From Lepidostoma basale (taxonomy: Eukaryota; Arthropoda; Insecta; Trichoptera; Lepidostomatidae): a stretch of 64,000 bases of DNA. The position numbers and the translations under genes are program-made. The DNA lies in the NCBI GenBank assembly GCA_022606425.2, contig JAHDVF020001509.1:1-64000 (forward strand). The letters are read 5' to 3'. The first letter of the stretch is position 1; every line of letters begins with the position of its first letter. This document shows positions 4,480 through 62,650 of the stretch, one piece after another. The notes under the pieces were generated by a model. It ran no database searches. It was not told the origin of the DNA and saw only the letters and a list, made by a program, of their open reading frames with translations.

Positions 4480-4865
4480 ATCATGTCTTGTATATTCTTC
4501 ATTCAGCTAATCATCACACCTCATAAGAGCAGCAATAGTTATAATTCGAAGTCAATAAAAAGTGTGGCCCACAGCGGCGCTCCTCTCGAGTCTCACTTCA
4601 GACTCTGTCCATCAATCATCCCGAATAATGCGATCTCCAGTCCCCAGCATCCACCACGAGGCCCCTGGCTTATTACTTATCATCAACTACTGACACCGCT
4701 TCACTTTGTCTACCAACTAAGGTTATATATATTTTGACACATATTGTTTCACTCGTCACATCTTATTTGGCAACAACTATTTCGTTTTTTTTACTATTAA
4801 TTCAAATTCAAAAATTATTTATTGTATACGAACACATTTTGAATATTATAAATATTTTATTACTC
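4480..4865. other. No gene seen
   Basis: AT-rich sequence with no recognised coding or repeat pattern apart from a modestly GC-rich part at 4565-4700. Confidence 0.4.
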
Positions 4866-4866
4866 A

Positions 4867-5250
4867 TAGAAAGATATAAGAAGTGAATGCGGTGCGAATA
4901 AAAGTGTTATGAACAAAATAATGAAAGGGTATTTAAGATGGTTTGGACACATGGAAAGAATGAGTGAAGACAGAATGGTAAAAAATATATTTATTAACGA
5001 TGTAAATGGAACCAGAAATAGAGGAAGACCGAGGAAAACGTGGCACGATCAAATAAATCAAATATTAAATGTCGGCCATTTGAGGAGTCAGAGAAATCGA
5101 CGCGCGTGCATGACACGATGTATGAATGTCGAGGAAGCGAGAGAAATATGGCAGCAAAGAAAAGGAGAAATATGGCAGCAAAGAAAAGTCCATTCTTTCT
5201 GCCTACCCCTTCGGGGAGACGGCGTGTCGGTTAGTTAGTTAGTTAGTTTA
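4867..5250 (+). mobile_element. RTE-B 3' end with an internal 24-bp duplication
   Basis: Reads MNKIMKGYLRWFGHMERMSE, VNGTRNRGRPRKTWHDQINQ, NRRACMTRCMNVEEAREIWQ and ends in a GTTA-repeat tail. The reading frame is open across 109 codons. The 24-bp unit at 5141-5164 is repeated exactly at 5165-5188, adding eight codons without breaking the frame. Confidence 0.85.
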
Positions 5251-10689: not shown

Positions 10690-10992
10690 CGATATCTATT
10701 TTTTATATTAATCCATTGTTTTAGCCGAAACACTTATACTTCAACATTATTCAAGTTTTCATTTGAAACACTGTTATTGTACGTATCACGATTCATTTTT
10801 TATGAAATTGTCGCGACAGCTGTTTCGCCAGCCTATGTTAGCATAATCAGGTGTTATTTATTGTTTCTTGAACAAAGATGTTGAAACTCAATATTCAATA
10901 ATTAATAGGTACGAATGATAACGTCTGTTTAATAGTTTAAGTAAGTTTTATTAAATTTTATGTGAATAACATGTTTCGCCTGTCTATTATAT
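10690..10992 (-). repeat. H2 and H1 repeats joined; H2 core present
   Basis: On the minus strand the hammerhead-like core reads CTGATTA (10850-10844), an extra T, stem II GCTAAC/GCTGGC around loop ATAG, GAAA (10826-10823), CAGCTG, then TC (10816-10815). Five of six stem II pairs form, one being U-G. An H1 copy in reverse follows at 10855-10992 (ttgtttcttgaacaaagatg to aacatgtttcgcctgtc). Confidence 0.7.
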
Positions 10993-11227: not shown

Positions 11228-11425
11228 CAATATTTGATAATACTTTGGATAGGCGAAACATGTCATTCATATACCATAAAAAATAATAAAACTTGTATAA
11301 AATAGACGTTTTTATTCGTATTAATTAACATGTTAGTTAATTGTAATACCTAATGACGCCAACAAAGGTTGGCGAAACATATGTCGCGACAATTCGATAA
11401 AAATTGTGATACGTATAATAACAGT
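11228..11425 (+). repeat. H1 repeat followed by an H2 hammerhead-like motif
   Basis: H1 part: ttggataggcgaaacatgtc and the ataaaacttgtataaaatag block. H2 part: CTAATGA (11350-11356), extra C, stem II GCCAAC/GTTGGC with loop AAAG (six perfect pairs), GAAA (11374-11377), CATATG, TC (11384-11385). The core differs from CTGATGA by one base (G to A). The palindrome CATATG replaces CAGCTG. Confidence 0.7.
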
Positions 11426-11995
11426 GATTCAAAATATAAAATTTAGTTATGAATATTTACATTGTTTGATAGAGAAATGTTTATTGTGTGTTTATAATTC
11501 GGGTTCGAATAAGTTATATACATTAATTCTTTTTACAAATAACTTAAAATCAAAGCGGACCTATTATTGGTCCATTGTCAACCAATAGCGGACGTCTTTG
11601 AACATCACACCTCCGGGTCCTTGAGTGCGCATGTGCCCCATTGTCCTGCCTACGGCATCATGTACCCACACACGTACCGCAATGGGAATATTTGCCTGTC
11701 ACGCCCTCGCACAATATGCGGGTGGCGAGTGACAATGGTACCCTCCAAGTTAACTCTCCATTCAAAGTCATTCTCTATACATACACGTGCACCCAGCCGA
11801 GAATATGTGGTACATATTCCACATTTCAAATATTCTATTGTGTGGGTTCTTATGTATTGTAGATCAAAACCTTTTAATGAAACTCCTACCTGTTGATATT
11901 TGTTCCTTAAGATCAAAATATGTTTAATGTTTCTTGAACAGTCATCTAAAACTCCTTATAAAATAGTTTTATGTAAGTTTTTACTAGGCATTATC
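11426..11995. other. No gene; GC-richer part with a CCAAT pair
   Basis: Between 11550 and 11800 the base composition rises. ATTGG (11566-11570) and CCAAT (11582-11586) face each other 11 bp apart within repeated gcggac words. Possible promoter or non-coding element. The frames here carry no recognisable protein. Confidence 0.3.
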
Positions 11996-17454: not shown

Positions 17455-17890
17455 TTTCATAAATCAACTTATTGAACGTTAAGGCATTAAAAATGTGGAA
17501 TTCCATACTTAGGAAATTGAAAATAAATTTGTTTAATCCTCAAAATATTTCTTTTTAAATTAAAAAACACGACATATTTCGGAGGATTTCTCCATCTTCA
17601 GGTGTAAAAATGTAATATGTGTTATTTAATTTTTTTTTAAATGTTTTGTGGATTAAACAAAGTTATTTTCAATTTCCTAAGTATATTACTATGGAATTCT
17701 ATGGAAGTTGGAAGTTGATTAATGTCAGTACGGCTGATAAGGCAAAGTAATACAAAAAAAATTTAAAGAAAGATTATATTTTTACACCTGAAGATGGAGT
17801 TACCTTCGAAACATGTCATGTTTTATAATATTTGGTTAATATTTTGTGGATTAAACAAAGTTATTTTCAATTTCCTAAGTACAAGTTTAT
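17455..17890. repeat. H8 inverted pair with two hammerhead-like motifs
   Basis: Left, minus strand: CTGAAGA, T, stem II GGAG with CTCC, GAAA, TATG, TC (about 17570-17602). Right, plus strand: CTGAAGA, T, GGAG/CTTC around TTAC, GAAA, CATG, TC (about 17789-17819). The arms share gtggattaaacaaagttatt and caatttcctaagta. The terminal module gcattaaaaatgtggaattc is shared with H7. Confidence 0.75.
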
Positions 17891-18174: not shown

Positions 18175-18440
18175 AACTTAAAAAACTTCTTCTACGATTT
18201 AATGATTTAACGAATTAAAACAAAGTTTTTTTTTTCACTTTTCAGTTTATTTTTCTCGACATGTTTCGAATGTTGTACACCTTCTTCATCGAGATATATT
18301 TTCTTATTTTATATCGCTCTCCCGATGATGAAGGTGTGAAATCTTCAAGACATGACGATAAAAATAAACTAAAAAGTGGAAAAAACTTTGTTGATTCACC
18401 AAACATCAGTATTATGGAATTCATGTTAACGCCTTAAGTT
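18175..18440. repeat. H7 fold-back element
   Basis: Left arm, minus: a core of GATGAAGAAGG type, then TTCGAAACATGTCGAG. Right arm, plus: cccgatgatgaaggtgt and aagacatgacg. The outer arms pair tttttcacttttcagtttat with ataaactaaaaagtggaaaa. Terminal module: atggaattcatgttaacgcc. Confidence 0.7.
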
Positions 18441-19302: not shown

Positions 19303-19560
19303 TCGCTATCACTTTGTGTTGTGGATTCACATTTGAATAACTTTTAGAAAACATTGTATTATCACAACACTTTTTTGCACTTTTCACAAACATGTTTCGG
19401 GACACAAACTTCCCTTCTTCAGTGTATGAATTTTATATTCATACACTGAAGAAGGGAAGTTTGTGTCCCGAAACATGTTGGTGAAAATTGTAAAAAAAAG
19501 TGTTGTGATAAAACAGTGTTTCCAAAAAGTTATTCAAATTTTATTTGAACACCACCAATC
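19303..19560. repeat. H9 inverted pair, two hammerhead-like motifs
   Basis: Plus motif: CTGAAGA (19446-19452), extra A, stem II GGG/CCC (19454-19456, 19467-19469), GAAA (19470-19473), CATG, TT. The left arm (19389-19433) is its mirror copy, so the centre is an almost perfect palindrome. Arms run about 125 bp out to ttcgctatcactttgtgttg on the left and the region of gttattcaaattttatttga on the right. Confidence 0.8.
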
Positions 19561-19924: not shown

Positions 19925-20135
19925 ATTGTCTGTGTATATTCGCTATCACTTTGTGTTGTGAGTTCACATTTGAATAACTTTTTGGAAACATTGTACGAGT
20001 ATTATCACAACACTTTTCACAAACATGTTTCGGGACACAAACTTCCCTTCTTCAGTGTATAATTTTAAATTTATACACTGAAGAAGGGAAGTTTGTGTCC
20101 CGAAACATGTTTGTGAAAAGTGTTGTTGTTTTTGT
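19925..20135. repeat. Second H9 inverted pair, right arm truncated
   Basis: The left arm is nearly the same as the first copy, including tatcactttgtgttg, and both central motifs keep CTGAAGA, GGG/CCC, GAAACATGTT. The right arm stops after gtgaaaagtgttgt, so the copy is incomplete. Confidence 0.8.
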
Positions 20136-20920
20136 TGAAATCTGAGAGTTTTGCTGTACTTCTGATTTTTTTAAATTTGCTATATATCAGATTATCAAGT
20201 ACTAAATACAAAAACAGTATAAATAAGAGAAGTAAGCGAAACGAAAAAATGTACCCGTATAAAAATATTACCTATCTATTATCGAATACTTTGAATGTTA
20301 CACAAATCCAGGGGACTTGGGTTTATGTCTGGACACGTTTTGTGCTTAACCGTTAATTTAAATCCTTGGTGTGAGTATTAAAAAAATCTTACTTATACTA
20401 TAGCTATATGATTGATCATTAGATACCGAATATGATTGAGATTTTAGATTCGAAGAAAAAGAGAAAATTTGTGTTTTTTTTATAAGTAATTGACGAACAT
20501 GGGGCATATATTTTTTTACCAATTTTTTTTACCTTGAATGTTGATTAAATATTAGTTTTATGCAATTAGAATAAACTTTTTTTTCACTCTTTAGAGGAAG
20601 GTTATATTGTAGGGAGCATCGTACATCAGTATGCAGCAGCTGCAGGAGCTGGTGGAGGAGACAATAAAACAAGTTCTATCTTCAGTGTTTCTGTATTTAC
20701 ATATTTACACACATCTTATCCAATTAATTACTATTTACAGGTTTGAGTATCATCAGGGAGGTACTAGAATAATAATAGAAATAATTTCTAGAATAAATTA
20801 TTACATTTACTAACATTTTGATACTTATCATAAATCTTAATATTTTATAAATATTTTTGAGCAAAACATTGAGGTGGGAATTCTATGCAAAAGCCTCGGC
20901 AGTGTAACGTTTATATCAAT
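20136..20920. other. No gene; possible SINE B-box scrap near 20308-20340
   Basis: caggggacttgggtttatgt is close to the tRNA-like phrase at 23500-23525. Otherwise AT-rich, between the repeats and the 3' end of atonal. Confidence 0.35.
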
Positions 20921-21439: not shown

Positions 21440-22261
21440 TTACTGCAGGAGCTCGTAGAGCGCCGTGATGTAGGTCTGCGCCATCTGGAGGGTCTCGTAC
21501 TTGGAGAGCTGCCGGTCGCTGCCGAGGGAAGGCAAGTAAGTCCTGAGGCGGTCGAAGGCCTTGTTGAGGTTCTGCATCCTCCGCCTCTCGCGCGCGTTGG
21601 CCGCGAGCCGCCTCCTCCTCATCACCAGCGGGCTGACCACCTTCCCCCGCCCCCTGCCGCGCTTCACCTCGCCGAACTCCTCTCCGTATAGCGCCTCGTC
21701 TCCAGAATCCTGCATCAAGCTGTCGTCGTCTTCGAGGAATTCTCCTTCGTCGCCGTCTAGTTTGAACGGTTCGTCCGAGTCACCGGCGAGAATCTGGATT
21801 TTTTGTGAGGATTGATTGAAGGTTTTGCAGTTTTTCTTGTTGTTCTTTAAAGTGCCTTCAATCGGCGCGAGCAGGTCCGAAGTGTAAAATTCCGCGTTGA
21901 ATGGCTGGTTGGCTATCCCTCGGAATGCGATGGTGTTGGAAGAAGGAATCAGATTAGTGAAATGTTTGTCTCCGACGAGTATCTGCTCCTGCAGAGCCAG
22001 TCTCTGCTCGTGGCCCTCCGCGGGACTGATGGACCTGTAGCTATCTCCGGGCGAGGGAGTGGCCAGGTCGGAGCAGTCTCCGTACCTCTGCAGCAGCTCG
22101 GCCGGCTGGGGAGTCGGGTACTCCAGGGACACGTGGCCGGAGTCGGGAGAGCGGGGGTAGGAATATGACGAGAAGTAGCTGAGGCTGTCCGTCAGGCCGT
22201 AAGGGTCCTGCTTGGGCCCTCCGACGTGCATGTAGCGGTGGGCGTACATCTCGGTGGCCAT
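21440..22261 (-). CDS. ato: Atonal-family proneural bHLH transcription factor
   Basis: A 273-residue protein in a single open frame. Its C-terminal 59 residues (about 215-273) form a complete bHLH domain: basic part [17 protein letters not shown], helix 1 [11 protein letters not shown], loop [10 protein letters not shown], helix 2 [18 protein letters not shown]. The [13 protein letters not shown] basic region, the [14 protein letters not shown] helix and the end of the protein right after the domain are all typical of insect Atonal. Neurogenins and the ASC group differ at these positions. An acidic stretch (about 160-198) and KRGRGRGK precede the domain. The N-terminal half is rich in S, P, Y and Q. 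The start is the ATG at 22261, preceded in frame by TAA two codons upstream. Such proteins bind E boxes as heterodimers with Daughterless (E proteins) and specify photoreceptor and chordotonal precursors in Drosophila. Here the gene is alone in repeat-rich DNA and richer in GC than its surroundings. Confidence 0.93.
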
Positions 22262-22480
22262 CACTTATTCTCCAATTTGTTCAAAAACACAACTCGTTTT
22301 ACTATTTTTTTAATCACGAAAAAGTTCCGATTAAAACACTTTCTTGTTAGAGATTCAAATTGTAAGCTTTTAAGTTCGCGAAATAATTTACGATAAAAGC
22401 TCCACTAGGTGTCGGGGACCAGCGTCACTCGATAGAAAGATGTTGCCACAGCGCCGGTCGAAGCGGCATTGAGCCCCATA
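22262..22480 (-). promoter_or_regulatory. Likely atonal 5' UTR
   Basis: Lies between the start codon and the predicted start site about 25-30 bp downstream of the TATA box. No intron is needed to join them. An E box CATATG sits at 22477-22482, near the predicted start site. Extent inferred only from these signals. Confidence 0.45.
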
Positions 22481-22994: not shown

Positions 22995-23262
22995 TTATTC
23001 AAATGTTTTGATAATGTCTTAGAGAGGCGAAACATGTCGTTCACATAAAATATAATAAAACATCTAGAAAACAGACGTTTTCATTCGTATTCATCAAAAC
23101 ATTATTACAAATATCACATTTTATAATGCTCTAGCAAGGCGAAACAAGTCATAATAAAACTTGTATAAAACAGGCGTTTACATTCGTACCTATTAATTAT
23201 TAAATATTGAGTTTTTCTTCATTGTTTATAAAACAATAAATAACAAGCACAAATCATTACTT
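22995..23262 (+). repeat. Two H1 copies in tandem; first has a full hammerhead-like layout
   Basis: First copy: TTGATAA (23008-23014), extra T, stem II GTCT/AGGC (with a U-G pair) around TAGAG, GAAA (23029-23032), CATG, TC (23037-23038). Second copy: gctctagcaaggcgaaacaa. Each is followed by the usual ataaaac/tagacg block and, at the end, a ttgtttataaaacaataaat module. Confidence 0.75.
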
Positions 23263-23744: not shown

Positions 23745-24175
23745 ATGCATTAACACTGGAATTCCATAGTAATACACTTCGGATGGAGAAAATAACTTTG
23801 TTTATAATCCACAAAATATAAAAAACACGACATGTTTCGGAGGAAATCACCTTCTTCAGGTGTAAATACGAGTATATTATATAATAAAAACAAAACAAAG
23901 AGACTTATTGAACGCTTAGGCATTAACACTGTGGAATTCCATAGCAATTAAAAATAACTTTGTTTAATCCACTAATTATTAAAAAAAAGAGTATTATAAA
24001 ACACGACATGTTTTAAATAAATTATAATAAAAACTAAACAAAGAAAGACTAATACAAAAACGCATTTGAAATTCGTCTTATTCTTTTATTAAATAAAGTT
24101 ATTTTTAATTTTCTAAGTATAAACAAAGAAAGACTAATAAAAAACGCATTAAAAATCGATACAATACAAAGGAAC
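23745..24175 (-). repeat. H8 copies, one with a hammerhead-like motif
   Basis: Minus strand around 23823-23865: CTGAAGA, extra A, GG...CC stem, GAAA, CATG, TC. Repeated terminal modules (gcattaacactgtggaattc, gttatttttaattttctaag) show at least two overlapping copies. A second motif is reduced to cacgacatgtttt. Confidence 0.65.
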
Positions 24176-24905: not shown

Positions 24906-25318
24906 AATTCAAATTATTAGAATATTAATTATTTAAATATTAGAAATCAAAGTCGATCGATTAACTATTATATATTTACAGTACAGTCTTCATTATGTTC
25001 AATGGTAGAATAGATTCTATAGGAGATAAAAACATCTAGATCATTCATTCATTCAGCGCGCAATTCCAAGGTGCTGGACCGAGCGTAATCTTTGAGTAGC
25101 CAAAGTACGAGGAGGTACCTACCTACATACAGAGGAGGTACTCGCCCAGCACAGACCATTTCGCTAGCGGTCATTACCGCTATTTGCACATTTGTATTAG
25201 CCATATGTGCCCCCAGTAAGACTCCGGCCCATCTAAATCGGCCATTGCCAATATTAGAATCTTATATTACTCTTATTAAATGTTAAATTGTAAAACTCTG
25301 TTTACTTATCACAATTTT
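24906..25318. other. No gene seen
   Basis: Mixed composition, no recognised reading frame. A ctacctacatacagaggagg patch near 25116 is unremarkable. Confidence 0.4.
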
Positions 25319-25319
25319 T

Positions 25320-25390
25320 ATTTATATTTTTTTATTTTTACGACAGCTGTTTCGTCAACCTGTGTTGACATCATCAGGTGTAATAATAAT
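25320..25390 (-). repeat. H2 hammerhead-like motif, best-preserved single copy
   Basis: Minus strand: CTGATGA (25377-25371), extra T, stem II GTCAAC/GTTGAC with loop ACAG (six perfect pairs), GAAA (25353-25350), CAGCTG (25349-25344), TC (25343-25342). Every conserved core base of a hammerhead is present. No inverted partner is adjacent. Confidence 0.8.
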
Positions 25391-34384: not shown

Positions 34385-34620
34385 ATTATTAAATGTTTAT
34401 TACAATTCATGCCAACTAGTTTCGCTTGGTGCTTCATCAGGGCAGCATAATAATTATTATTAACTACTATTAAGTTATTATACTGCCCTGATGAAGCTTG
34501 AGTCCAAGCGAAACTAGATCGGATCAATTATAATAACCATACCGTGGTTAAATACAAATTATTCTATTATTATTTATTTTTAAATATCTAACCACAAAGT
34601 GAGTGCTTCATATGAAAATT
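34385..34620. repeat. H6 inverted pair with hammerhead-like motifs
   Basis: Right motif, plus: CTGATGA (34488-34494), extra A, stem II GCTTG/CAAGC with loop AGTC, GAAA (34510-34513), CTAG. Left motif, minus: CTGATGA, partly deleted stem II, GAAA, CTAG, TT. Its flanks TGCC and GGCA pair as stem I. Terminal module ctaaccacaaagtgagtgct follows. Confidence 0.8.
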
Positions 34621-35051: not shown

Positions 35052-35214
35052 GTATTTTAGATGAACTTTTAAGTGAATGGAAATAAATTTATATTGACAG
35101 TTGAAGCTAGAACTGTTTTCATAAGGATTTTCCTAAATAAATGATTTTTGTCAGTGGCGTATTTGTAAGAAATGCTGGGCTCCAAGCGCTACAAATAATT
35201 TTATACTGTTAAAT

Positions 35215-35400
35215 TAAATAACTCTGTTTTTTGTATCACAATTATATTTTATTTTACGCGACAGCTGTTTCATCAACCTATGTTGACATCTACAACCTAT
35301 GTTATTGTAACACCTGATGATGTCAACATAGGTTGATGAAACAGCTGTCGCGTAAAATAAAATACAAATGTGATACACAATACAAATTTATTTATAATAA
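35215..35400. repeat. H2 inverted pair; right copy complete
   Basis: Plus motif: CTGATGA (35314-35320), extra T, stem II GTCAAC/GTTGAT (35322-35327, 35332-35337; six pairs with one G-U), loop ATAG, GAAA (35338-35341), CAGCTG, TC (35348-35349). The left arm keeps stem II, GAAA and CAGCTG but lost the CTGATGA core. Arms match for about 60 bp. Confidence 0.8.
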
Positions 35401-37634: not shown

Positions 37635-37910
37635 CAAATGGGTGAGAAAAGATTGGTTAAAAAGATAAATACAAGTGGATAGTATGAATGGAAAATAAGT
37701 CGTGGAAGGCTAAGGAAGATATGTCATGACCAAATTAATCAATTACTGAAAGGCGGCCATGTTCGAAGTCAGAACATCGACGAGCGTGCGTGTCACAGTG
37801 TGTGAATGTAGAAGAGGCGCGGAATTATGTCAGGATAGAACATTGTGGTGATCGATCCTCTCTACCTACTCCTACCGGGAAACGGCGTGATGGTTAATTA
37901 GTTAGTTAGA
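37635..37910 (+). mobile_element. RTE-B 3' end
   Basis: agtcgtggaaggctaaggaa, catgaccaaattaatcaatt and cggccatgttcgaagtcaga match the RGRPRKTWHDQIN...VGHVRSR region. The end ggaaacggcgtgatgg with a GTTA tail is intact. Confidence 0.75.
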
Positions 37911-38060
37911 TTTTCAGCTTCGATCGGTTTCGGCAGCTCGCTGCCATCTTCTGGTAAATGAGATATTTTTATAGGATGGAAACTGGTCGGATTTATTATC
38001 AATTTGAATAAAACTAAATACATATTATAAATTTCTTCTATTATATATACGCCATACTTT
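37911..38060 (-). repeat. H4 element with complete motif
   Basis: Minus strand: CAGAAGA (37953-37947), extra T, stem II GGCAG/CTGCC with loop CGAG, GAAA (37931-37928), CCGATC. Flanked on the right by the H4 arm tactaaatac-type sequence. Confidence 0.7.
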
Positions 38061-38814: not shown

Positions 38815-39025
38815 TTTAAATAAAATAATAATACACTTTTAGTATTTGTATCTAAACCACTTTATTTGCTTACACCAACCGGTTTCGCTCCTGCCGGAGC
38901 TTCGTCAGGGTGAGGAACGAATGATACAATGTGGTTTAGATACAAATACTAAAAGTGTATTATTATTTTAATTAATAATGTCACATCACAAATTAAGCGC
39001 TTCATACGAATGTTCAAAAAATATT
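38815..39025 (-). repeat. H3 element with complete hammerhead-like motif
   Basis: Minus strand: CACC, CTGACGA (38908-38902), extra A, stem II GCTCC/GGAGC with loop GGCA (five pairs), GAAA (38886-38883), CCGG, TT, GGTG. CACC and GGTG pair as stem I. Outer arms acacttttagtatttgtatc and the inverse at 38933-38959 close the fold-back. Terminal module aatgtcacatcacaaattaa. Confidence 0.8.
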
Positions 39026-39029
39026 CCTT

Positions 39030-39262
39030 TTTATTTATTGTTTCTTGAACAATGATGTAAAATGACATATTAAATAATTAATAGGAATGAAAACGTGTGT
39101 TTTATACCAGTTTTATAATAATTTATGGGAATGACATGTTTTGTATCTCTAAAGCATTACATTTGATAATGCCTTAGACAGGTAAAATACGTCATTCCCT
39201 TAAATGATAATAAAACTTCTAGTAAACAAACATATTCAATCGTATTAATCATATTTAATCAA
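39030..39262. repeat. H1 inverted pair
   Basis: Minus copy (ttgtttcttgaacaatgatg to gggaatgacatgttttg) then plus copy (ttgataatgccttagacagg, taaaatacgtcattccc). Stem II GCCT/AGGT in the plus copy. Confidence 0.65.
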
Positions 39263-39965: not shown

Positions 39966-40074
39966 TCCCCTATATTTATTTATTTATTATTACGATAACT
40001 TCTATTTTAAGTGCGCCGTTTTATAAAATCAATTACTCTAAGGGCGCACTAGTAAAATAATGACCGAACAGTGT

Positions 40075-40325
40075 AGTTTTTAGAATAATAATTAAATTAA
40101 ACGATGTTTTTTAACTACTTCCACTTTTGTCTTTATTTAGACAGCGACCGGTTTCGCCAGGCTTGCTGGCATCGACAGACTGGTGCCAGCGAGCCTGGCG
40201 AAACCGGTCGCTGTCTAAATAAAGACAAAAGTGGAAGTAGTTAAAAAACATCGTTTTATTTAATTATTATTTAAAATGAACTTCCATCAAGAGATTTCAG
40301 TAAAATCATTTGATTAGTTTTTAGA
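40075..40325. repeat. H5 near-perfect palindrome with hammerhead-like motifs
   Basis: The inner arms agree at 71 of 72 bases, with about 20 bp further out nearly matching. Left motif, minus: CTGTCGA (40178-40172), extra T, stem II GCCAG/CTGGC, loop CAAGC, GAAA (40155-40152), CCGG, TC. Right motif is its mirror with a shortened core. The near identity suggests recent insertion or gene conversion. Terminal module aaaatgaacttccatcaaga follows on the right. A second H5 pair is at 56790-57010. Confidence 0.85.
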
Positions 40326-51797: not shown

Positions 51798-53080
51798 TTA
51801 GGTCCTTACATATGAAATTGGCGTTTTGTATGGGAGGAACATAAAGTTATTTTTTTTTAAATATAATATATTTATTTAATCAAAGTATGTACCATTGCTA
51901 TCTATGCACTTTTGCCATCTCATAGGTAGTTCATCGATCCCTTTACTAAAAAAACCATTCGGACGGGAATCAATAAAATCTTTGAACTCGGTTTGGACTG
52001 CCCTATCGGAGTTGAATTTTTTCCCTTGCAAGAAGTTATCCAAATTTCGAAAAAAATACTAATCTGTTGGGGCAAGGTCCGGAGAGTACGGTGGATGTCT
52101 TAGACATTCCAATTGAAGCTCTTCTAATTTGGTAGCCGTCTGTTGTGCAGTGTGTGGTCTAGCGTTATCATGAAGCAGCAGTGGCCTAGAGCGATTAACC
52201 AGCCTCGGTTGTTTAGCAGCTAGCTTTTCCATCATGGTTTGCAGTTGCTGACAATAGACATCTGCCGTAATCGTCTGGCCAGATTTAAGAAAGCTGTAGT
52301 GAACGACACCAGCACTAGTCCACCAAATGCTCACAAGTAACTTTTTTGGAGTCAATTTTCGCTTGGGGCATGGTTTTGGGCATTCGGTAGGGTTCAGCCA
52401 TTGCGATGAGCGCTTCCGATTATCATAAAGGATCCACTTTTCATCACAGGTAATGATTCGATTCAAAATCCCTTCATATTGTGCCGGTTGAGTAATGCAA
52501 CGCAGCAGTCAACGCGCGTTTGTTGATTTGCTTCACTCAATTCGTGAGGTACCCACGTTTCAAGCTTTTTCTTCCCAATTTGCTTCAAGTGGATTAAAAC
52601 ATTTTTATCACTAACACCGCAGCCTGCAGCTAACTCGGACGTGGTTTGCGATGGATCCGCTTCCACAATAGCCTTCAATTCTTCATTATCAACTTTGGTC
52701 TCCGGCCGTCCACGGGGCTTGTTCTGCAGGTCGAAATTTCCAGAACGAAAACGTTGGAACCAAAAACGCACTGTGTTTTCTTTTGCGGCACCGTCGCCAT
52801 ACACATCATTAATCCTTCGAGCCGTTTCTGCAGCACTGGTGCCACGGTGGAACTCGTACTCGTAAATAACGCGATATTTCAAGTTTTCCATTTTGTAAAC
52901 TGAGTGACGCAAAGAAAAAAAACAATTGAGGAAAAAACAAATGAATTATAATTTTCGAAATACAAATACTTGAGTAAATAGCTGTATAAATTTGAATTTG
53001 GAATTCCTAACCAAAGAGAAGATATTTGAGATCAAAGTTGCCAGTACGGCAAAACGCCAATTTCATATGTAAGGACCTAA
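51798..53080 (-). mobile_element. Mariner transposon, structurally complete
   Basis: Length 1283 bp. The terminal 31 bp (51798-51828 and 53050-53080) are perfect inverted repeats beginning TTAGGTCCTTACATATGAAA, and TA is present on both sides (51796-51797, 53081-53082), the expected target duplication. It encloses one damaged transposase gene. Size, TIR length and TA target fit the mariner family. The closest subfamily looks like the cecropia type from memory, unverified. Confidence 0.95.
51876..52891 (-). pseudogene. Mariner transposase, broken by one frameshift and one stop
   Basis: Begins MENLKYRVIYEYEFHRGTSA (the ATG at 52891), with helix-turn-helix segments through FWFQRFRSGNFDLQ and GVSDKNVLIHLKQIGKKKLE. 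A one-base loss near 52465 shifts frame between NRHNMKGF and the catalytic block TCDEKW. The aspartates stand in CDEKW, LLLHDNARPH and DLAPTD, with exactly 34 residues between the last two (D,D34D). A TAG follows DLAPTD. The same frame then runs YFFRNLDNFLQGK to NGTYFD and a stop. About 338 codons in all. Only two lesions, so it decayed recently. It would cut and paste mariner copies if intact elsewhere. Confidence 0.93.
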
Positions 53081-53240: not shown

Positions 53241-53438
53241 AAATCTAAAACAAATTATATAAAATACACTGATATAAAATAAAATAACAAATAAAAATCA
53301 TTTAATACATAATGTTCTTTTAGATGGTGCACTTGTCGTTAGCTGGACGATCCGGACATTTGTGTTTATTAAATTTTTATTCCACTGTTTTTTTAATTAG
53401 GCACTTAAAATAATCCAACACCAGCAAAAACTTATGAC
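53241..53438. other. Nothing recognised
   Basis: AT-rich spacer between RTE-B copies. Confidence 0.4.
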
Positions 53439-53439
53439 A

Positions 53440-53765
53440 AACTAACTAACTAACTAACTGACTAACCATCATGCCGTTTCCCCGGAGGGGTAGGCAGGGA
53501 GGAAGGACTTCTATTCGGCTCTGTCCTGACATACCTCTCTAGATTCCTTTACATTCATACATCGTAACGTGCACGCTCATCTATTTATCCGACTTCGAAC
53601 GTGGCCGCCTTTTATTATTTGATTAATTTGGTCATGTCATGTTTTCCTTGATCTTCTACGGCTTCTCTTTCCACTCACACTGCTTGTATACAACAGTTTA
53701 ACCATTTTCTGTCGTCCATTCGTTCCATATGTCCAAACCACCGCAGGGATCATTTTTTCAGTTAA
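53440..53765 (-). mobile_element. RTE-B 3' end
   Basis: Three-prime block (atgccgtttccccggagggg), then NRRACTLRCMNVKESREVCQ-like and WFGHMERMDDRKWLN-like regions. Frame-broken. Confidence 0.8.
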
Positions 53766-53814
53766 ATATTATGCGGAGAATAAATATATGGGGAAACATG
53801 TCGTTCTAAAAAAT

Positions 53815-54018
53815 AGTCAGGTTCGATTCCCGGCGAGGGCAGTGTGATTGTCACACTGTCTTAGGTCTGGTGTAGGATTCAAGTGACAATAAAATGGCGA
53901 TAGATGATCTATTTATCACATGTCACGAGAATCACTATGATAGCTATAATATCCTTTACTTCGATTTGGCTCATGCTGTCATGATGTAAAGAGCGATTCA
54001 ACAAAATAATAATAATAA
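53815..54018 (+). repeat. SINE, 5'-truncated, AAT-tailed
   Basis: B box aggttcgattcccggcgagg, ggtctggtgtaggattcaag, gatgtaaagagcgattcaac and an AAT tail. It meets the GTTA tail of the next RTE-B copy end to end. Confidence 0.75.
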
Positions 54019-54300
54019 ACTAACTAACTAACTAACTAACCATCACGCCGTCTCCCCGAAGGGGTAGGCAGAAAGAATGGACTGCCACACTTTTCTTTCC
54101 TGACATATTTCTCTCGCTTCCTCAACATTCATACATCGTGTCATGCACGCGCGTCGATTTCTCTGACTCCTCACATGGCCGACATTCAATATTTGATTTA
54201 TTTGATCGTGCCACGTATTCCTCGGTCTTCCTCTATTTCTGGTTCCATTTACATTATTAACACATAATTTTTTTACCACTCTTTCTTCATTCATTAATAA
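54019..54300 (-). mobile_element. RTE-B 3' end, open frame
   Basis: NEERVVKKLCVNNVNGTRNR, GRPRNTWHDQINQILNVGHV, NRRACMTRCMNVEEAREICQ, SILSAYPFGETA, then a GTTA tail. No stop inside about 90 codons. A young copy. Confidence 0.85.
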
Positions 54301-55562: not shown

Positions 55563-55962
55563 TGTCGTATGCATATTATATATAATAATTTTATAAAATG
55601 AGCTAAAATAATCCACGCGCTTGATAGTGCTACCAAAAGAACCAATTACAAATAACGTTTTGTATCGTGAAATGAAGATATTTGACGTGAAGGGATGACC
55701 CCGTGGGTGACTCGGCGTATTTTTTTCTCGTGGCGCCTGCTATAGAAAGAGGAAGATGAAGAATTCTGTATAAAGCATTGAATAGCTATTCACAATGCGT
55801 ATTCAACAATAAATTATGACTTAAGCGCTGCTCCAAAATTAGTGCAACATTCCGTTAGGGTGTAATTTAATATTGTATTCAATGATGATTTAACACTTAA
55901 TATTTCTAGCTACATTATGGGCCAAAAAAACTAAGTAAACATTATTCACTGTTAAATTAAAA
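55563..55962. other. No gene seen
   Basis: Mixed AT-rich sequence without recognised elements. Confidence 0.45.
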
Positions 55963-55964
55963 AA

Positions 55965-56240
55965 CACTGTTTTAATATCAAAAATTGAGTTTATTTTTTA
56001 TAAAATCGTCGCGACAGCTGTTTCGGCAACCGATGTTACCATCGTCAGGTGTTACAATAAACGTTTATTAAATGTTTATTTCAACACCTGATGATGGTAA
56101 CATCGGTTACCGCTGTTGCGACGATTTTATAAAAAATAAACTAATTTTTTTATATTAAAACAGTGTTTTTAATTTAACAGTGAATAATGTTAAAATATCA
56201 AAGTGTTTCCGCCAAAACAATGGATTTCCTAAATAAACAT
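55965..56240. repeat. H2 inverted pair with a re-paired stem II
   Basis: Left, minus: CTGACGA (56048-56042), extra T, stem II GGTAAC/GTTGCC, loop ATCG, GAAA (56024-56021), CAGCTG, TC. Right, plus: CTGATGA (56088-56094), T, GGTAAC/GTTACC, with the GAAACA that should follow deleted. Arms match to ctgttttaat on either side. Terminal module with aaaacaatggatttcct. Confidence 0.85.
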
Positions 56241-56789: not shown

Positions 56790-57010
56790 AGAAATTTTTA
56801 ACTACTTCCACTTATGTCTTTATTTCGACAGCGACCGGTTTCGCCAGGCTCGCTGGCATCGACAGACTGGTGTGTCGGTGCCAGAGAGCCTGGCGAAACC
56901 GGTCGCTGTTGAAATAAAGATAAAAGTGGAAGTGGTTAAAATACATTGTTTTATTTAATTATTATTTAAAATGATCTTCCATCAAGAGATTTCAGTAAAA
57001 TCATTTGATT
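56790..57010. repeat. Second H5 inverted pair
   Basis: Left motif, minus, has core CTGTCGA, stem II GCCAG/CTGGC around CGAGC, GAAA, CCGG, TC. The centre is a few bases longer than at 40075. Both pairs share the right-hand flank ending tcagtaaaatcatttgatta, so that flank belongs to the element. Confidence 0.8.
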
Positions 57011-57099
57011 ATCTTTAACTAAAGACTTTCGATGTACTCGTATCGGTCCATGTTAAGTTAATAGATACTGTATTACAGATTCCACTTATTATATTGAGT

Positions 57100-57284: not shown

Positions 57285-58092
57285 TCTTGGTGTCCGAGAA
57301 TGTATGAGGTATGCAAGTCAAATGATTTAATGATGAATGTCGGAATGTCAAAGGTGATGGTTTTTGAAAAGGAAGAGCGAATGACAGTTTGTAACATTAA
57401 TGTGAACGAAGAGAACTTGGAGCGGGTGAGTGAGTTTGTGTATTTAGGTAAAATGTTCACAGCGGATGGCCGAACGGACAGTGACGTCGAAAGAAGGGTT
57501 GGTGCGGGTAACAAAGTGAATGGAGCTTTAAAAATAGTCATTGGAAACAAGAATTTATAAATGAAAGCTAAAACGGCCGTTCACAATGGAGTTCTGGTTC
57601 CAACAGGAATGTATGGAAGCGAAGCATGGAACTGGCAGAAGAAGGATGAGAACAGAAAAAAAGCGGTAGAGATGAGGTCCCTAAGGTGTATGTGTGGCAG
57701 AACGATATACGACAGAATCTCAAATACTGATATAAGAAAGGAATGTAGAGCGGAAGAAGATATTATGAACAAAATTATGAAAGGATCGCTGCGTTGGTTC
57801 GGACATATGGAACGCATGAATGGAGAAAAAATGGTTAAGAAAGTATACGTTAATGATGTAAATGGAACAGGGAGTCGAGGCGAACCGAGGAAAACATGGC
57901 ATGACCAAATCGATCCAATTTTAAAGGTTGGTCATGTTAGAAGTCGGAAGAATCGACGTGCGTGTATGACTCGTTGTATGAATGTGGAGGAATCTAGAGA
58001 GGTGTGCCAGGATAGAGTAGTGTGGTGGTCCATTCTCTCTGCCTACCCCTGCGGGGAAACGGCATGATGGTTTGTTTGTTTGTTTGTAGAAT
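57285..58092 (+). mobile_element. RTE-B, longest open copy
   Basis: About 256 codons in one frame with a single stop (TAA, 57558-57560): DLMMNVGMSKVMVFEKEERM, EFVYLGKMFTADGRTDSDVE, KTAVHNGVLVPTGMYGSEAW, MRSLRCMCGRTIYDRISNTD, MNKIMKGSLRWFGHMERMNG, RRACMTRCMNVEESREVCQD, SILSAYPCGETA, then a GTTT tail. It starts just past the catalytic ADD block, so it is 5'-truncated. Because it is least damaged it serves as the reference for the other RTE-B pieces. Confidence 0.9.
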
Positions 58093-61324: not shown

Positions 61325-61692
61325 ATAAAAATGAACAATGCCAGAATTTCAAATGCTGATATCAGAAAAGAATGTAGAGCGGAAGAAAGTATTATGAACC
61401 AAATTATGAAAGAATTAAGACGTTGGTTTGGACATATGGAACACACGGATGAATGAAAATTTGTTAAGAAAGTGTACGTTAACAATGCGAATGAAGTAGA
61501 GTCAGGGAAGATCAAGGAAAATGTGGGAAAATGTGGAGAAAATGTGGAGTGAAATTAAGGGTCGGCCATGTTGGAATTCGGAAAAATCGACGTGCGTGTG
61601 TTATGATTTTAGAGAAAGCAGGAAGGGTGTGTCAGGATATAGTAGTGCGACGGTTCATTCTCTCTGCCTATCCTTGCGGAGAAATGACATGA
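61325..61692 (+). mobile_element. RTE-B 3' end
   Basis: ADIRKECRAEESIMNQIMKE, LRRWFGHMEHTDE then a stop, and worn downstream blocks to cattctctctgcctatcctt. Confidence 0.8.
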
Positions 61693-61990
61693 TTATTTTT
61701 CTCGACATGTTTCAAAGCCTTAAAGGCAGAAACATACTATTAACACGCGACGTGGCGTGTTTACTCCCACCACCGGCAACACGTCGATCTAGCTCGTCTG
61801 GATCGGGTGGCGTGTGCGCGCATGGCGTCGCGTCGGGTGTTCGTAGTGTGATTCTGTCCATAGAAAACAATACAATTTGATTCGACTCAACACGCATCAC
61901 GTGGCATCGGGTGGCGTGGCGTGTTAATAGTATGTTTCTGCCTTTACACATTCATCATCGGGAGAACGGTATAAACTGAGTTACTCCACT
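61693..61990 (-). repeat. H7 arm interrupted by a MITE
   Basis: ttatttttctcgacatgttt (left) and cacattcatcatcgggagaa (right) are parts of one H7 arm that are adjacent in other copies. They are separated here by 222 bp plus a duplicated TA. Confidence 0.7.
61723..61944. mobile_element. MITE with 26-bp perfect terminal repeats
   Basis: Both ends begin aaggcagaaacatactatta and continue acacgc in mirror orientation. TA flanks each side (61721-61722, 61945-61946). The interior is GC-rich with repeated ggcgtg/cgtcg words and no coding capacity. The interrupted H7 arm confirms the boundaries. I do not recognise the family. The TA duplication suits a Tc1/mariner-type helper. Confidence 0.85.
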
Positions 61991-62332: not shown

Positions 62333-62650
62333 TTTATAAATCAAGGAATGAGTTTTCCACTTTTTATTTTGGAATTCCGCAATGCATCAGATAGTAGCTG
62401 ATTCTAAAAAAATCATAATGAATTTGGAATTTCGATTTTTTATTAATTAAAACACTGTTGTCACTTTTGAGTTTCATTTTCCTCGACATGTATCGAAGGA
62501 CATACACCATTATCTTCGGAAGAATGATGTAAACAGTTTTATCGAAAGTGAGCGTCGTTATCCCAATGATGAAGGCGAAAAACCTATGAAACATGTCGAT
62601 AAAAATAATCTCAGAAGTGGAAAAAACATTATTTTAATTCATTAAAAAAA
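62333..62650. repeat. H7 fold-back element
   Basis: Left, minus: tcctcgacatgtatcgaagg. Right, plus: cccaatgatgaaggcgaaaa, cctatgaaacatgtcgataa. Outer arms cacttttgagtttcattttc and tctcagaagtggaaaaaaca pair. Confidence 0.65.

What the first reader, a model, noticed from the sequence alone, without database searches (positions are those of the whole stretch)
25340..25383. Hammerhead-ribozyme-like motifs shared by many unrelated-looking fold-back repeats
Seen: ten sequence families (H1-H10) repeat one layout: CTGANGA or a near match, one extra base, a 2-6 bp hairpin, GAAA, a palindrome, T plus one base. The copy here has every core base (CTGATGA, GTCAAC/GTTGAC, GAAA, CAGCTG, TC). Known: hammerhead ribozymes need CUGANGA, a stem II, GAAA and UH at the cleavage site, and minimal type I hammerheads occur in Penelope-like retroelements. 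Inference: the fold-backs in this window are remains of Penelope-like or other ribozyme-bearing retroelements, and much of the window's unexplained repeat content has this origin.
Basis: partly seen in the sequence, partly recalled or inferred. Interest (0 to 1): 0.88.

Follow-up and report, generated by a model that had tools for sequence, protein, structure and literature searches.

The report
Ribozyme-bearing ends of Penelope retrotransposons
Many small hairpin-like repeats in this insect-like genome are back-to-back ends of Penelope-type jumping genes that carry a hammerhead-shaped RNA motif which may once have cut its own RNA; some lineages have altered catalytic cores, which offers a natural test of whether the cutting matters.

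Summary
The minus-strand copy at 25342-25377 has every hammerhead core base, and the window has 12 perfect-core sites against 0.4 in shuffles. That motif, loop free, occurs 2001 times exactly in the 769-Mb genome, backwards control 0.

The retroelement reading also holds. Motifs lie 310-397 nt past Penelope-like coding in 14 of 16 linked stretches. The fold-backs are head-to-head element ends, and ends cluster at an ORF start codon or about 14 codons past it. Window 40184-40316 is identical to the end of an element with an open 758-codon RT/GIY-YIG frame, and its fold-back lies in an 11-bp target duplication. Penelope-like elements are known to carry minimal dimer-type hammerheads.

Unexpected: family F3, the larger of two families counted (5453 exact copies), has the core CTGTCGA (A6 to U) in 100 of 100 listed copies; family F6 has a compensated U3-A8 pair. 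Whether any copy cleaves is unknown. Rfam reports no hammerhead above its cut-off, and pairing between arms should compete.

The parts
25342..25377 (-). The finding's hammerhead motif (family F1, complete core, extra T after A9, stem II GTCAAC/GTTGAC, palindrome ACAGCTGT, C17)
   Evidence: sequence; descriptor; Rfam Hammerhead_1 aligned at 25336-25383, 16.0 bits, below the cut-off of 34
25272..25377 (-). F1 terminus: hammerhead plus 3' region ending at model position 98, next to the ORF start codon (97); no inverted partner found beside it
   Evidence: nhmmer E 9.7e-9
35182..35292 (-). Left arm of an F1 head-to-head fold-back (core altered to TTGTAGA)
   Evidence: nhmmer E 1.3e-17; pairing; core
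35314..35394 (+). Right arm of the same fold-back, core CTGATGA complete
   Evidence: nhmmer E 1.9e-14
55920..56048 (-). Left arm of an F1-type head-to-head fold-back, core CTGACGA
56088..56227 (+). Right arm of the same fold-back (GAAACA stretch missing in this arm)
10709..10850 (-). F1-type terminus
11351..11430 (+). F1-type terminus with a different palindrome (ACATATGT) and stem II
40079..40188 (-). Left arm of an F3 head-to-head fold-back (core CTGTCGA); ends at the ORF start codon (model position 129)
   Evidence: nhmmer
40177..40316 (+). Right arm with tail, core incomplete at the junction; runs through ATG into the first codons (MNFHQEISVKSFD...); 40184-40316 is 100% identical to L049:4676-4808, the end of an element with an open 758-codon RT/GIY-YIG frame
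40074..40084 (.). Left copy of an 11-bp target-site duplication (TAGTTTTTAGA); overlaps the arm hit by a few bases
40315..40325 (.). Right copy of the same 11-bp target-site duplication
56790..56872 (-). Left arm of a second F3 head-to-head fold-back (core CTGTCGA)
56865..57011 (+). Right arm with tail (MIFHQEISVKSFDYL)
17506..17608 (-). F2 terminus (CTGAAGA core, stem I ACAC/GTGT)
17781..17881 (+). F2 terminus, opposite orientation
23761..23873 (-). F2 terminus, single
19377..19491 (.). F2b head-to-head fold-back, arms 19377-19431 (-) and 19437-19491 (+), both with complete CTGAAGA core
20004..20169 (.). F2b head-to-head fold-back, arms 20004-20063 (-) and 20069-20169 (+), both with complete CTGAAGA core
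34414..34525 (.). F5 head-to-head fold-back, motifs at 34414-34440 (-) and 34488-34525 (+), core CTGATGA in both; not searched by profile
38819..38971 (.). F4 head-to-head pair, 38819-38921 (-) with core CTGACGA and 38888-38971 (+)
39079..39251 (.). F6 head-to-head pair, 39079-39159 (-) and 39162-39251 (+); family core TTGATAA (U3-A8)
22997..23100 (+). F6 terminus (source of the F6 query; best of 17 F6 hits in the window)
18209..18398 (.). F7 head-to-head pair, 18209-18294 (-) and 18312-18398 (+); family core CCGATGA
62439..62644 (.). F7 head-to-head pair, 62439-62528 (-) and 62554-62644 (+)
37895..37959 (-). F9 terminus (core CAGAAGA; nhmmer hit 37913-37959)

Best explanation
The fold-backs and the finding's copy are terminal fragments of several lineages of Penelope-like retrotransposons. 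In F1 and F3 the hammerhead lies just upstream of an ORF start (60 and 66 nt between C17 and the ATG). Insertions tend to end at that start codon or about 14 codons past it, which fits internal initiation of reverse transcription on RNA that runs from one unit into the next (shown for another element in PMC11167929; inferred here). A second, inverted end is often joined head to head, so many 5'-truncated insertions look like short palindromes with the motif in one or both arms. The palindromic stem III has no loop, so cleavage is expected in a dimer, either of two units of one transcript or of two molecules. Shown: linkage to RT/GIY-YIG coding, head-to-head layout, two preferred end points, start codon at the boundary, target duplication, stem layout. 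Inferred: that the motif cuts element RNA and so sets an RNA 5' end; that the inverted arm comes from self-priming or template switching; that cleavage in a fold-back transcript is hindered by arm-to-arm pairing.
For: Pfam: RVT_1 (1.4e-13) and GIY-YIG (6.6e-5) in the L049 frame; 1341 proteins at E<=1e-10 among 7995 scored, the named ones in the listed 120 from a moth, a butterfly, beetles and a locust. Same-strand motif downstream of Penelope-like coding in 14 of the 31 loci with such coding: F3 at 388-397 nt in ten stretches of 8 loci (of 11 loci with F3-type coding), F2 at 310, 316, 325, 349 and 848 nt, F1-type once at 769 nt. Head-to-head against tail-to-tail within 400 nt: F1 23 to 3, F3 9 to 0, F6 8 to 2, F2 5 to 0, F7 5 to 0, F2b, F2c and F4 2 to 0 each, F9 none of either. 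Ends: F1 18 of 69 within 6 nt of the ATG and 30 of 69 36-48 nt past it; F3 17 and 17 of 42. One arm at each point in 7 of 23 F1 pairs (gap to 400) and 11 of 19 F3 pairs (gap to 3500); both at the ATG in 0 and 1, both past it in 1 and 1. Tail peptide against 68 Penelope-like N-termini, mean of ten best scores: F3 1, 1 and 2 of 2000 shuffles, F6 2, F1 6. Target duplications of 11, 11 and 12 bp at the window fold-back, L050 and L034. Published layout: head-to-head pLTRs, junction palindromes, a 31-bp tail, first codons in the pLTR, 8-10-bp duplications (PMC3846280, passages).
Against: 17 of 31 loci with Penelope-like coding gave no motif within 1000 nt; some are other lineages, in L037 and L051 the F3 motif is damaged, L047 and the rest were not followed. 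No coding remnant in the window. F1, the finding's own family, is linked to coding in one locus only, by a related subfamily (L033). By single best score the N-terminal test is weaker: F3 10-21 of 2000, F6 22, F1 191 (not significant). Of the other seven peptides tested by mean of ten, W38226 had 86 of 2000 and six had 412 or more; L024 had 48 by best score; the peptides were picked after looking. Many pairs do not show the one-short-one-long pattern within these limits (16 of 23 F1, 8 of 19 F3). Of eleven insertions checked for target duplications, three gave a clean one; L049 sits in an AT repeat, L036's match is inside element sequence.
Confidence: 0.93

Rival explanations
1. The fold-backs are MITEs, non-autonomous DNA transposons whose terminal inverted repeats look like hammerheads by chance or by a shared terminal hairpin.
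For: Short length and near-perfect arms look MITE-like, e.g. 96% complementary over 93 nt at 40079-40276.
Against: Ends cluster at two points (start codon, or about 14 codons further) with others between, not at one fixed terminus; target duplications 11 and 12 bp; arms match the ends of RT/GIY-YIG elements at up to 100%; 25 of 69 F1 hits are in no head-to-head pair within 400 nt; stems differ in sequence between families.
Confidence: 0.03
2. They are animal retrozymes: small non-autonomous units that spread as ribozyme-cut circular RNAs and are only secondarily near Penelope-like genes.
For: Short, hammerhead-bearing, thousands of copies, as described for animal retrozymes (PMC7229834, passages).
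Against: Retrozymes are described as tandem repeats of 150-450 bp; here same-strand neighbours within 400 nt are rare (F1 2, F3 2, F6 4, 0 in six other families) and head-to-head pairs dominate. The tail carries an ORF start.
Confidence: 0.05
3. The hammerhead shape is kept mainly as a binding or dimerisation site for the element's protein or RNA, and cleavage is dispensable.
For: F3, the larger of two families counted, has A6 changed to U in 100 of 100 listed copies and A6 in 0 of 35 aligned copies, yet its stems are intact and it has an open 758-codon frame. In an Anolis Penelope-like element cleavage was not needed for insertion in vitro (PMC11167929, passages).
Against: Several families keep a canonical core, and F6 keeps C3-G8 as U3-A8 (27 of 28 and 28 of 28), a swap described as active in PMC3088659 (passages); that is what selection on catalysis would leave. 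Low but measurable activity is reported there for an A6C variant, so F3 may still cut slowly.
Confidence: 0.3

Closest known systems
Penelope-like elements with GIY-YIG endonuclease (bdelloid Pen2a_Av and relatives, PMC3846280; Anolis PAc, PMC11167929; passages read of both)
   Same: RT plus GIY-YIG; inverted head-to-head terminal repeats with junction palindromes; optional tail on one arm; first codons of the ORF in the terminal repeat; target duplications (8-10 bp there, 11-12 bp here); hammerhead near the ORF start
   Different: Hammerhead ends 60-66 nt before the ATG here, whereas in PAc the ORF starts within it; thousands of exact motif copies, with coding found in only 1 of the 27 loci sampled by the F1 motif; ten motif families in one genome
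Minimal dimer-type hammerheads of Penelope-like elements (Cervera and de la Pena 2014; Lunse et al. 2017: neither paper held, known here from citations and review text in PMC7761336, passages)
   Same: Type I plan, stem III without loop or absent, no typical loop contacts described
   Different: Extra base between A9 and stem II in the families listed here; stem III palindromes of 6-8 nt that differ between families; core variants A6U, U3-A8, U4C, U4A as family majority. Whether those papers hold such variants could not be checked
Aedes aegypti repeat-type hammerhead with palindromic stem/loop III (PMC3088659, figure legend in passages)
   Same: Palindromic stem III proposed to pair in a dimer
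   Different: Its element context was not compared here
Animal retrozymes (PMC7229834, passages)
   Same: Type I hammerheads in small repeats in thousands of copies
   Different: Head-to-head instead of tandem; ORF start in the tail

Membership tests
Penelope-like element (PLE) | Penelope-type reverse transcriptase joined to a GIY-YIG endonuclease | tested here: met
   758-codon frame in L049: RVT_1 302-478, GIY-YIG 651-734; many listed homologues carry PF00078, PF26215, PF28514, some PF01541. Met by the partner of F3; F2 and F1-type loci show homology to the GIY-YIG end only
Penelope-like element (PLE) | Inverted (head-to-head) or tandem pseudo-LTRs, with an optional tail on one arm | tested here: met
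   F1 23 head-to-head of 28 close pairs; ends at two points; one arm at each in 7 of 23 F1 and 11 of 19 F3 pairs
Penelope-like element (PLE) | Target-site duplication of variable length | tested here: met
   11 bp at window 40074-40084/40315-40325, 11 bp L050, 12 bp L034; 3 clean of 11 checked
Penelope-like element (PLE) | Placement in the Penelope clade of a reverse-transcriptase tree | not tested
   no tree built
Hammerhead ribozyme, type I (families F1, F2, F2b, F2c, F4, F5) | Core CUGANGA...GAAA...UH complete in the family majority | tested here: met
   F4 majority by column, 3 of 10 copies complete; F5 seen in two window motifs only
Hammerhead ribozyme, type I (family F3) | Core CUGANGA complete | tested here: not met
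   CTGTCGA; 0 of 35 aligned copies have A6, 100 of 100 listed have T
Hammerhead ribozyme, type I | Stems I, II and III around the core | tested here: inconclusive
   Stem II and palindromic stem III present by search design; stem I paired beyond swaps over 18 clusters (12 of 20000) but weak in F1 (C-G, A-C mismatch, C-G, A-U) and F6; contiguous-run test 1291 of 20000
Hammerhead ribozyme, type I | Rfam Hammerhead_1 gathering score | tested here: not met
   0 hits in the window; 16.0 bits against 34 for the finding's copy; none for L024:5725-5830
Hammerhead ribozyme, type I | Self-cleavage | not testable with these tools
   needs transcripts
Animal retrozyme | Tandem units with a hammerhead in each | tested here: not met
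   same-strand neighbours within 400 nt: F1 2, F3 2, F6 4, 0 for six other families
Animal retrozyme | Circular RNA | not testable with these tools
   no RNA data

The most novel reading that the evidence does not exclude
In this genome a Penelope-like lineage with an open 758-codon frame (F3) reached more than five thousand exact motif copies after its hammerhead core changed at A6, so full ribozyme activity is not needed for spread; the stems and palindrome are kept for another job, such as pairing two element RNAs or marking where reverse transcription starts. Sister lineages with a complete core or a compensated U3-A8 core give the contrast set.
Probability: 0.3. Interest if true: 0.7.

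Novelty: new member of a known kind. Interest (0 to 1): 0.5.

Why it matters
[quoted passage not shown] Here one genome holds ten motif families with the same plan and different core states, from complete through compensated to altered, with thousands of exact copies and linked coding for at least two of them. That makes the role of the ribozyme testable by comparing sister lineages. It also explains a class of short, near-perfect hairpin repeats that could otherwise be filed as MITEs or miRNA-like hairpins.

Tried and rejected
Rfam at gathering score found nothing; at E<=10 it listed miRNA families, a bacterial sRNA family and others on long hairpins such as 19382-19486, 20006-20126, 34406-34534, 40133-40266 and 56008-56122, all below their cut-offs; I read these as chance matches to long hairpins. 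The reading that the 400 nt upstream of F1 codes for a protein C-terminus was dropped: only about 40 codons are open. A test of core conservation within F1 gave no excess of the core over the flanks in 32 copies not chosen by their core, so single copies decay about neutrally. RNA folding: the predicted dimer of the finding's copy has both stem II hairpins and an intermolecular stem III, but the other five examples mostly fold otherwise; not used as evidence. My first reading that F6 is catalytically dead was dropped after PMC3088659 (U3-A8 is described as an active swap). Literature: fold-back plus hammerhead, 4 papers, none on this by title and abstract start; hammerhead ribozyme plus MITE, 10 papers, none on this by title and abstract start, none of the ten opened; hammerhead plus A6U, 0. 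Exact patterns of F1 and F3 in IMG/VR: 0 hits each. The genome-wide count of all complete-core motifs did not complete.

Full report
What was checked. The finding names a minus-strand motif at 25340-25383. It is there: CTGATGA, one extra T, GTCAAC-ACAG-GTTGAC, GAA, the palindrome ACAGCTGT, C. A structural descriptor finds 12 perfect-core sites in the window against a mean of 0.4 and a maximum of 2 in 20 dinucleotide shuffles; one-mismatch sites are also in excess (13 against 5.9, maximum 11), two-mismatch sites are not (47 against 47.8). The looser tool pattern gives 39 matches, overlapping ends counted, against 7.4 (largest 20) in 100 shuffles. With no stem condition, 11 of 19 CTGANGA..GAAA sites in the window have both stems, while 60 random core permutations over 205 kb of held sequence average 0.12 (the 27 loci in that set were chosen for F1, the window was not).

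Genome scale. The window lies in a 769-Mb assembly of 1572 contigs, unnamed. The exact F1 motif with a free loop occurs 2001 times, the backwards control 0. The F3 motif with position 6 left open occurs 5453 times, control 0. No other family was counted genome-wide. Nearest named protein relatives are from a moth, a butterfly, beetles and a locust; the species itself is not identified.

Layout across families. In 290 kb of held sequence 99 motifs fall in 18 clusters by sequence (the loci were chosen for F1 or GIY-YIG). They differ in stem II, palindrome and flanks but share core, extra base, stem II, GAAA, palindrome and T plus A, C or T. Stem I was not used to find them; pairing of its first four positions is 42 of 72, against 29.7 when 3' flanks are swapped between clusters (12 of 20000 swaps as good). 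The contiguous-run version is weaker (1291 of 20000). F1 has a weak stem I. Single copies evolve about neutrally: in 32 F1 copies not chosen by their core, core positions are about as conserved as flanks. So the families were founded by copies with good motifs, and insertions then decay.

Link to Penelope-like elements. A search for GIY-YIG domains found 62 matches, of 542 candidates with 150 scored. In L049 an open 758-codon frame (RVT_1 and GIY-YIG) is flanked by F3 motifs, minus strand on its left and plus strand on its right. In L050 two such coding stretches lie head to head with F3 motifs at both outer ends. With 121 related proteins as tblastn queries, 31 held loci have Penelope-like coding and 14 of them a same-strand motif within 1000 nt downstream: F3 at 388-397 nt in ten stretches of 8 loci (11 loci have F3-type coding), F2 at 310-349 nt in four and 848 nt in one, an F1-type motif at 769 nt in one. 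Seventeen loci gave none; L037 and L051 have a damaged F3 motif, the others were not followed. The window itself has no coding match.

Anatomy of the fold-backs. F1 ends occur as 23 head-to-head, 3 tail-to-tail and 2 same-strand close pairs, F3 as 9, 0 and 2; F2, F2b, F2c, F4, F6 and F7 lean the same way, F9 shows no pairs. Among the 100 listed F3 places I count 19 minus-plus neighbours within 700 nt and no plus-minus ones (by eye). Ends cluster at two places: within 6 nt of an ATG (F1 18 of 69, F3 17 of 42) or 36-48 nt past it (F1 30 of 69, F3 17 of 42); 21 and 8 lie elsewhere. The F1 and F3 queries stop at 142 and 170 nt, which caps the far end; BLAST with the whole of L049 also stops mostly at 4808-4831. 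One arm at each place: 7 of 23 F1 pairs and 11 of 19 F3 pairs; both at the ATG 0 and 1; both past it 1 and 1 (F1 gap to 400, F3 to 3500). The finding's own copy ends at model position 98, beside the ATG at 97. The tail reads MNFHQEISVKSFDY in F3 and MLKYHSVSAKTMDYL in F1. Against 68 N-termini of Penelope-like proteins, such as MEFHQVPTTTSIECI, the mean of the ten best scores is reached by 1-2 of 2000 shuffles for F3, 2 for F6 and 6 for F1; by single best score 10-21, 22 and 191; seven other peptides were tested, one with 86 of 2000 and six with 412 or more by the mean. Published elements have head-to-head terminal repeats, junction palindromes, a tail, first codons in the repeat, and 8-10-bp duplications (PMC3846280, passages). 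In the window, the F3 fold-back around 40079-40316 shows this: arms ending at model positions 129 and 169, an 11-bp duplication, and 133 bases identical to L049. That settles its origin; three of eleven insertions checked had a clean duplication.

How it probably works. Reverse transcription of an Anolis element starts inside the start of the ORF, on RNA that reads from one unit into the next, and cleavage by its hammerhead is not required in vitro (PMC11167929, passages). The same would give the observed ends here, with 60 (F1) or 66 (F3) nt between C17 and the ATG. The palindromic stem III lacks a loop, so a dimer is expected, as for other minimal hammerheads. In fold-back transcripts the two arms should pair with each other and compete with the ribozyme fold; this is inference.

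Core variants. F6 has U3 in 27 of 28 and A8 in 28 of 28 copies; C3-G8 to U3-A8 is described as an active swap in PMC3088659 (passages). F3 has U at position 6: 0 of 35 aligned copies have A, 100 of 100 listed copies have T, in a pattern that fixes the other core letters. An A6C hammerhead in that paper cut slowly, and the paper notes that such decreases are generally taken as loss of function. F7 has U4 to C and F9 U4 to A as majority (13 and 5 copies, with variation). F3 is the larger of the two families counted, and other F3 loci match L049 mostly at 92-99% over the coding end, so a full-rate ribozyme seems unnecessary for its spread; slow cleavage is not excluded.

Rfam. The proposed covariance-model test fails at the curated threshold; Hammerhead_1 is the best family for the 81-nt stretch alone at 16.0 bits, cut-off 34, E 0.12, with SNORD81 at 15.8 bits behind it. 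The extra base, missing loop III and weak stem I may explain the low score; this is inference.

Verdict. Observation confirmed; Penelope-like origin supported; extent in the window 6.7% by these families; activity untested. Known kind, with core-variant lineages that make a useful test.

Noticed in passing
window 20006-20126, 19382-19486, 40133-40266, 56008-56122: Rfam families (mir-5014, MIR2599, mir-2733, mir-977, MIR7526, and the sRNA STnc400) score E below 1e-4 here but under their cut-offs; these are the head-to-head hairpins, so hairpin-based miRNA annotation of such genomes may pick up Penelope ends.
   Followed up: partly
window 4843-5247, 53425-54300, 57561-58087, 61328-61708 and others: Many copies of a LINE-like 3' end with coding (...NVNGTRNRGRPRKTWHDQINQ...) and (TTAG)n or (TTTG)n-like tails; these are the longest repeats listed in the window. 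The LINE label is by eye.
   Followed up: no
window 52059-52945 (-): Two overlapping frames that look like a mariner-type transposase in two pieces (recalled resemblance, no search run).
   Followed up: no
window 21440-22264 (-): 274-codon frame ending in a bHLH-like domain (atonal-like by eye), a likely host gene.
   Followed up: no
L049:1540-1640 and 4809-4900: The Penelope-like element with an open frame is inserted in an (AT)n repeat, in line with the AT-rich target preference reported in PMC11167929.
   Followed up: no
F1 majority sequence, 3' of the motif: UGUAACAC before the core could pair with GUGAUACA about 20 nt after the cleavage site (7 of 8 positions by eye), a possible alternative stem I with a large bulge.
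   Followed up: no
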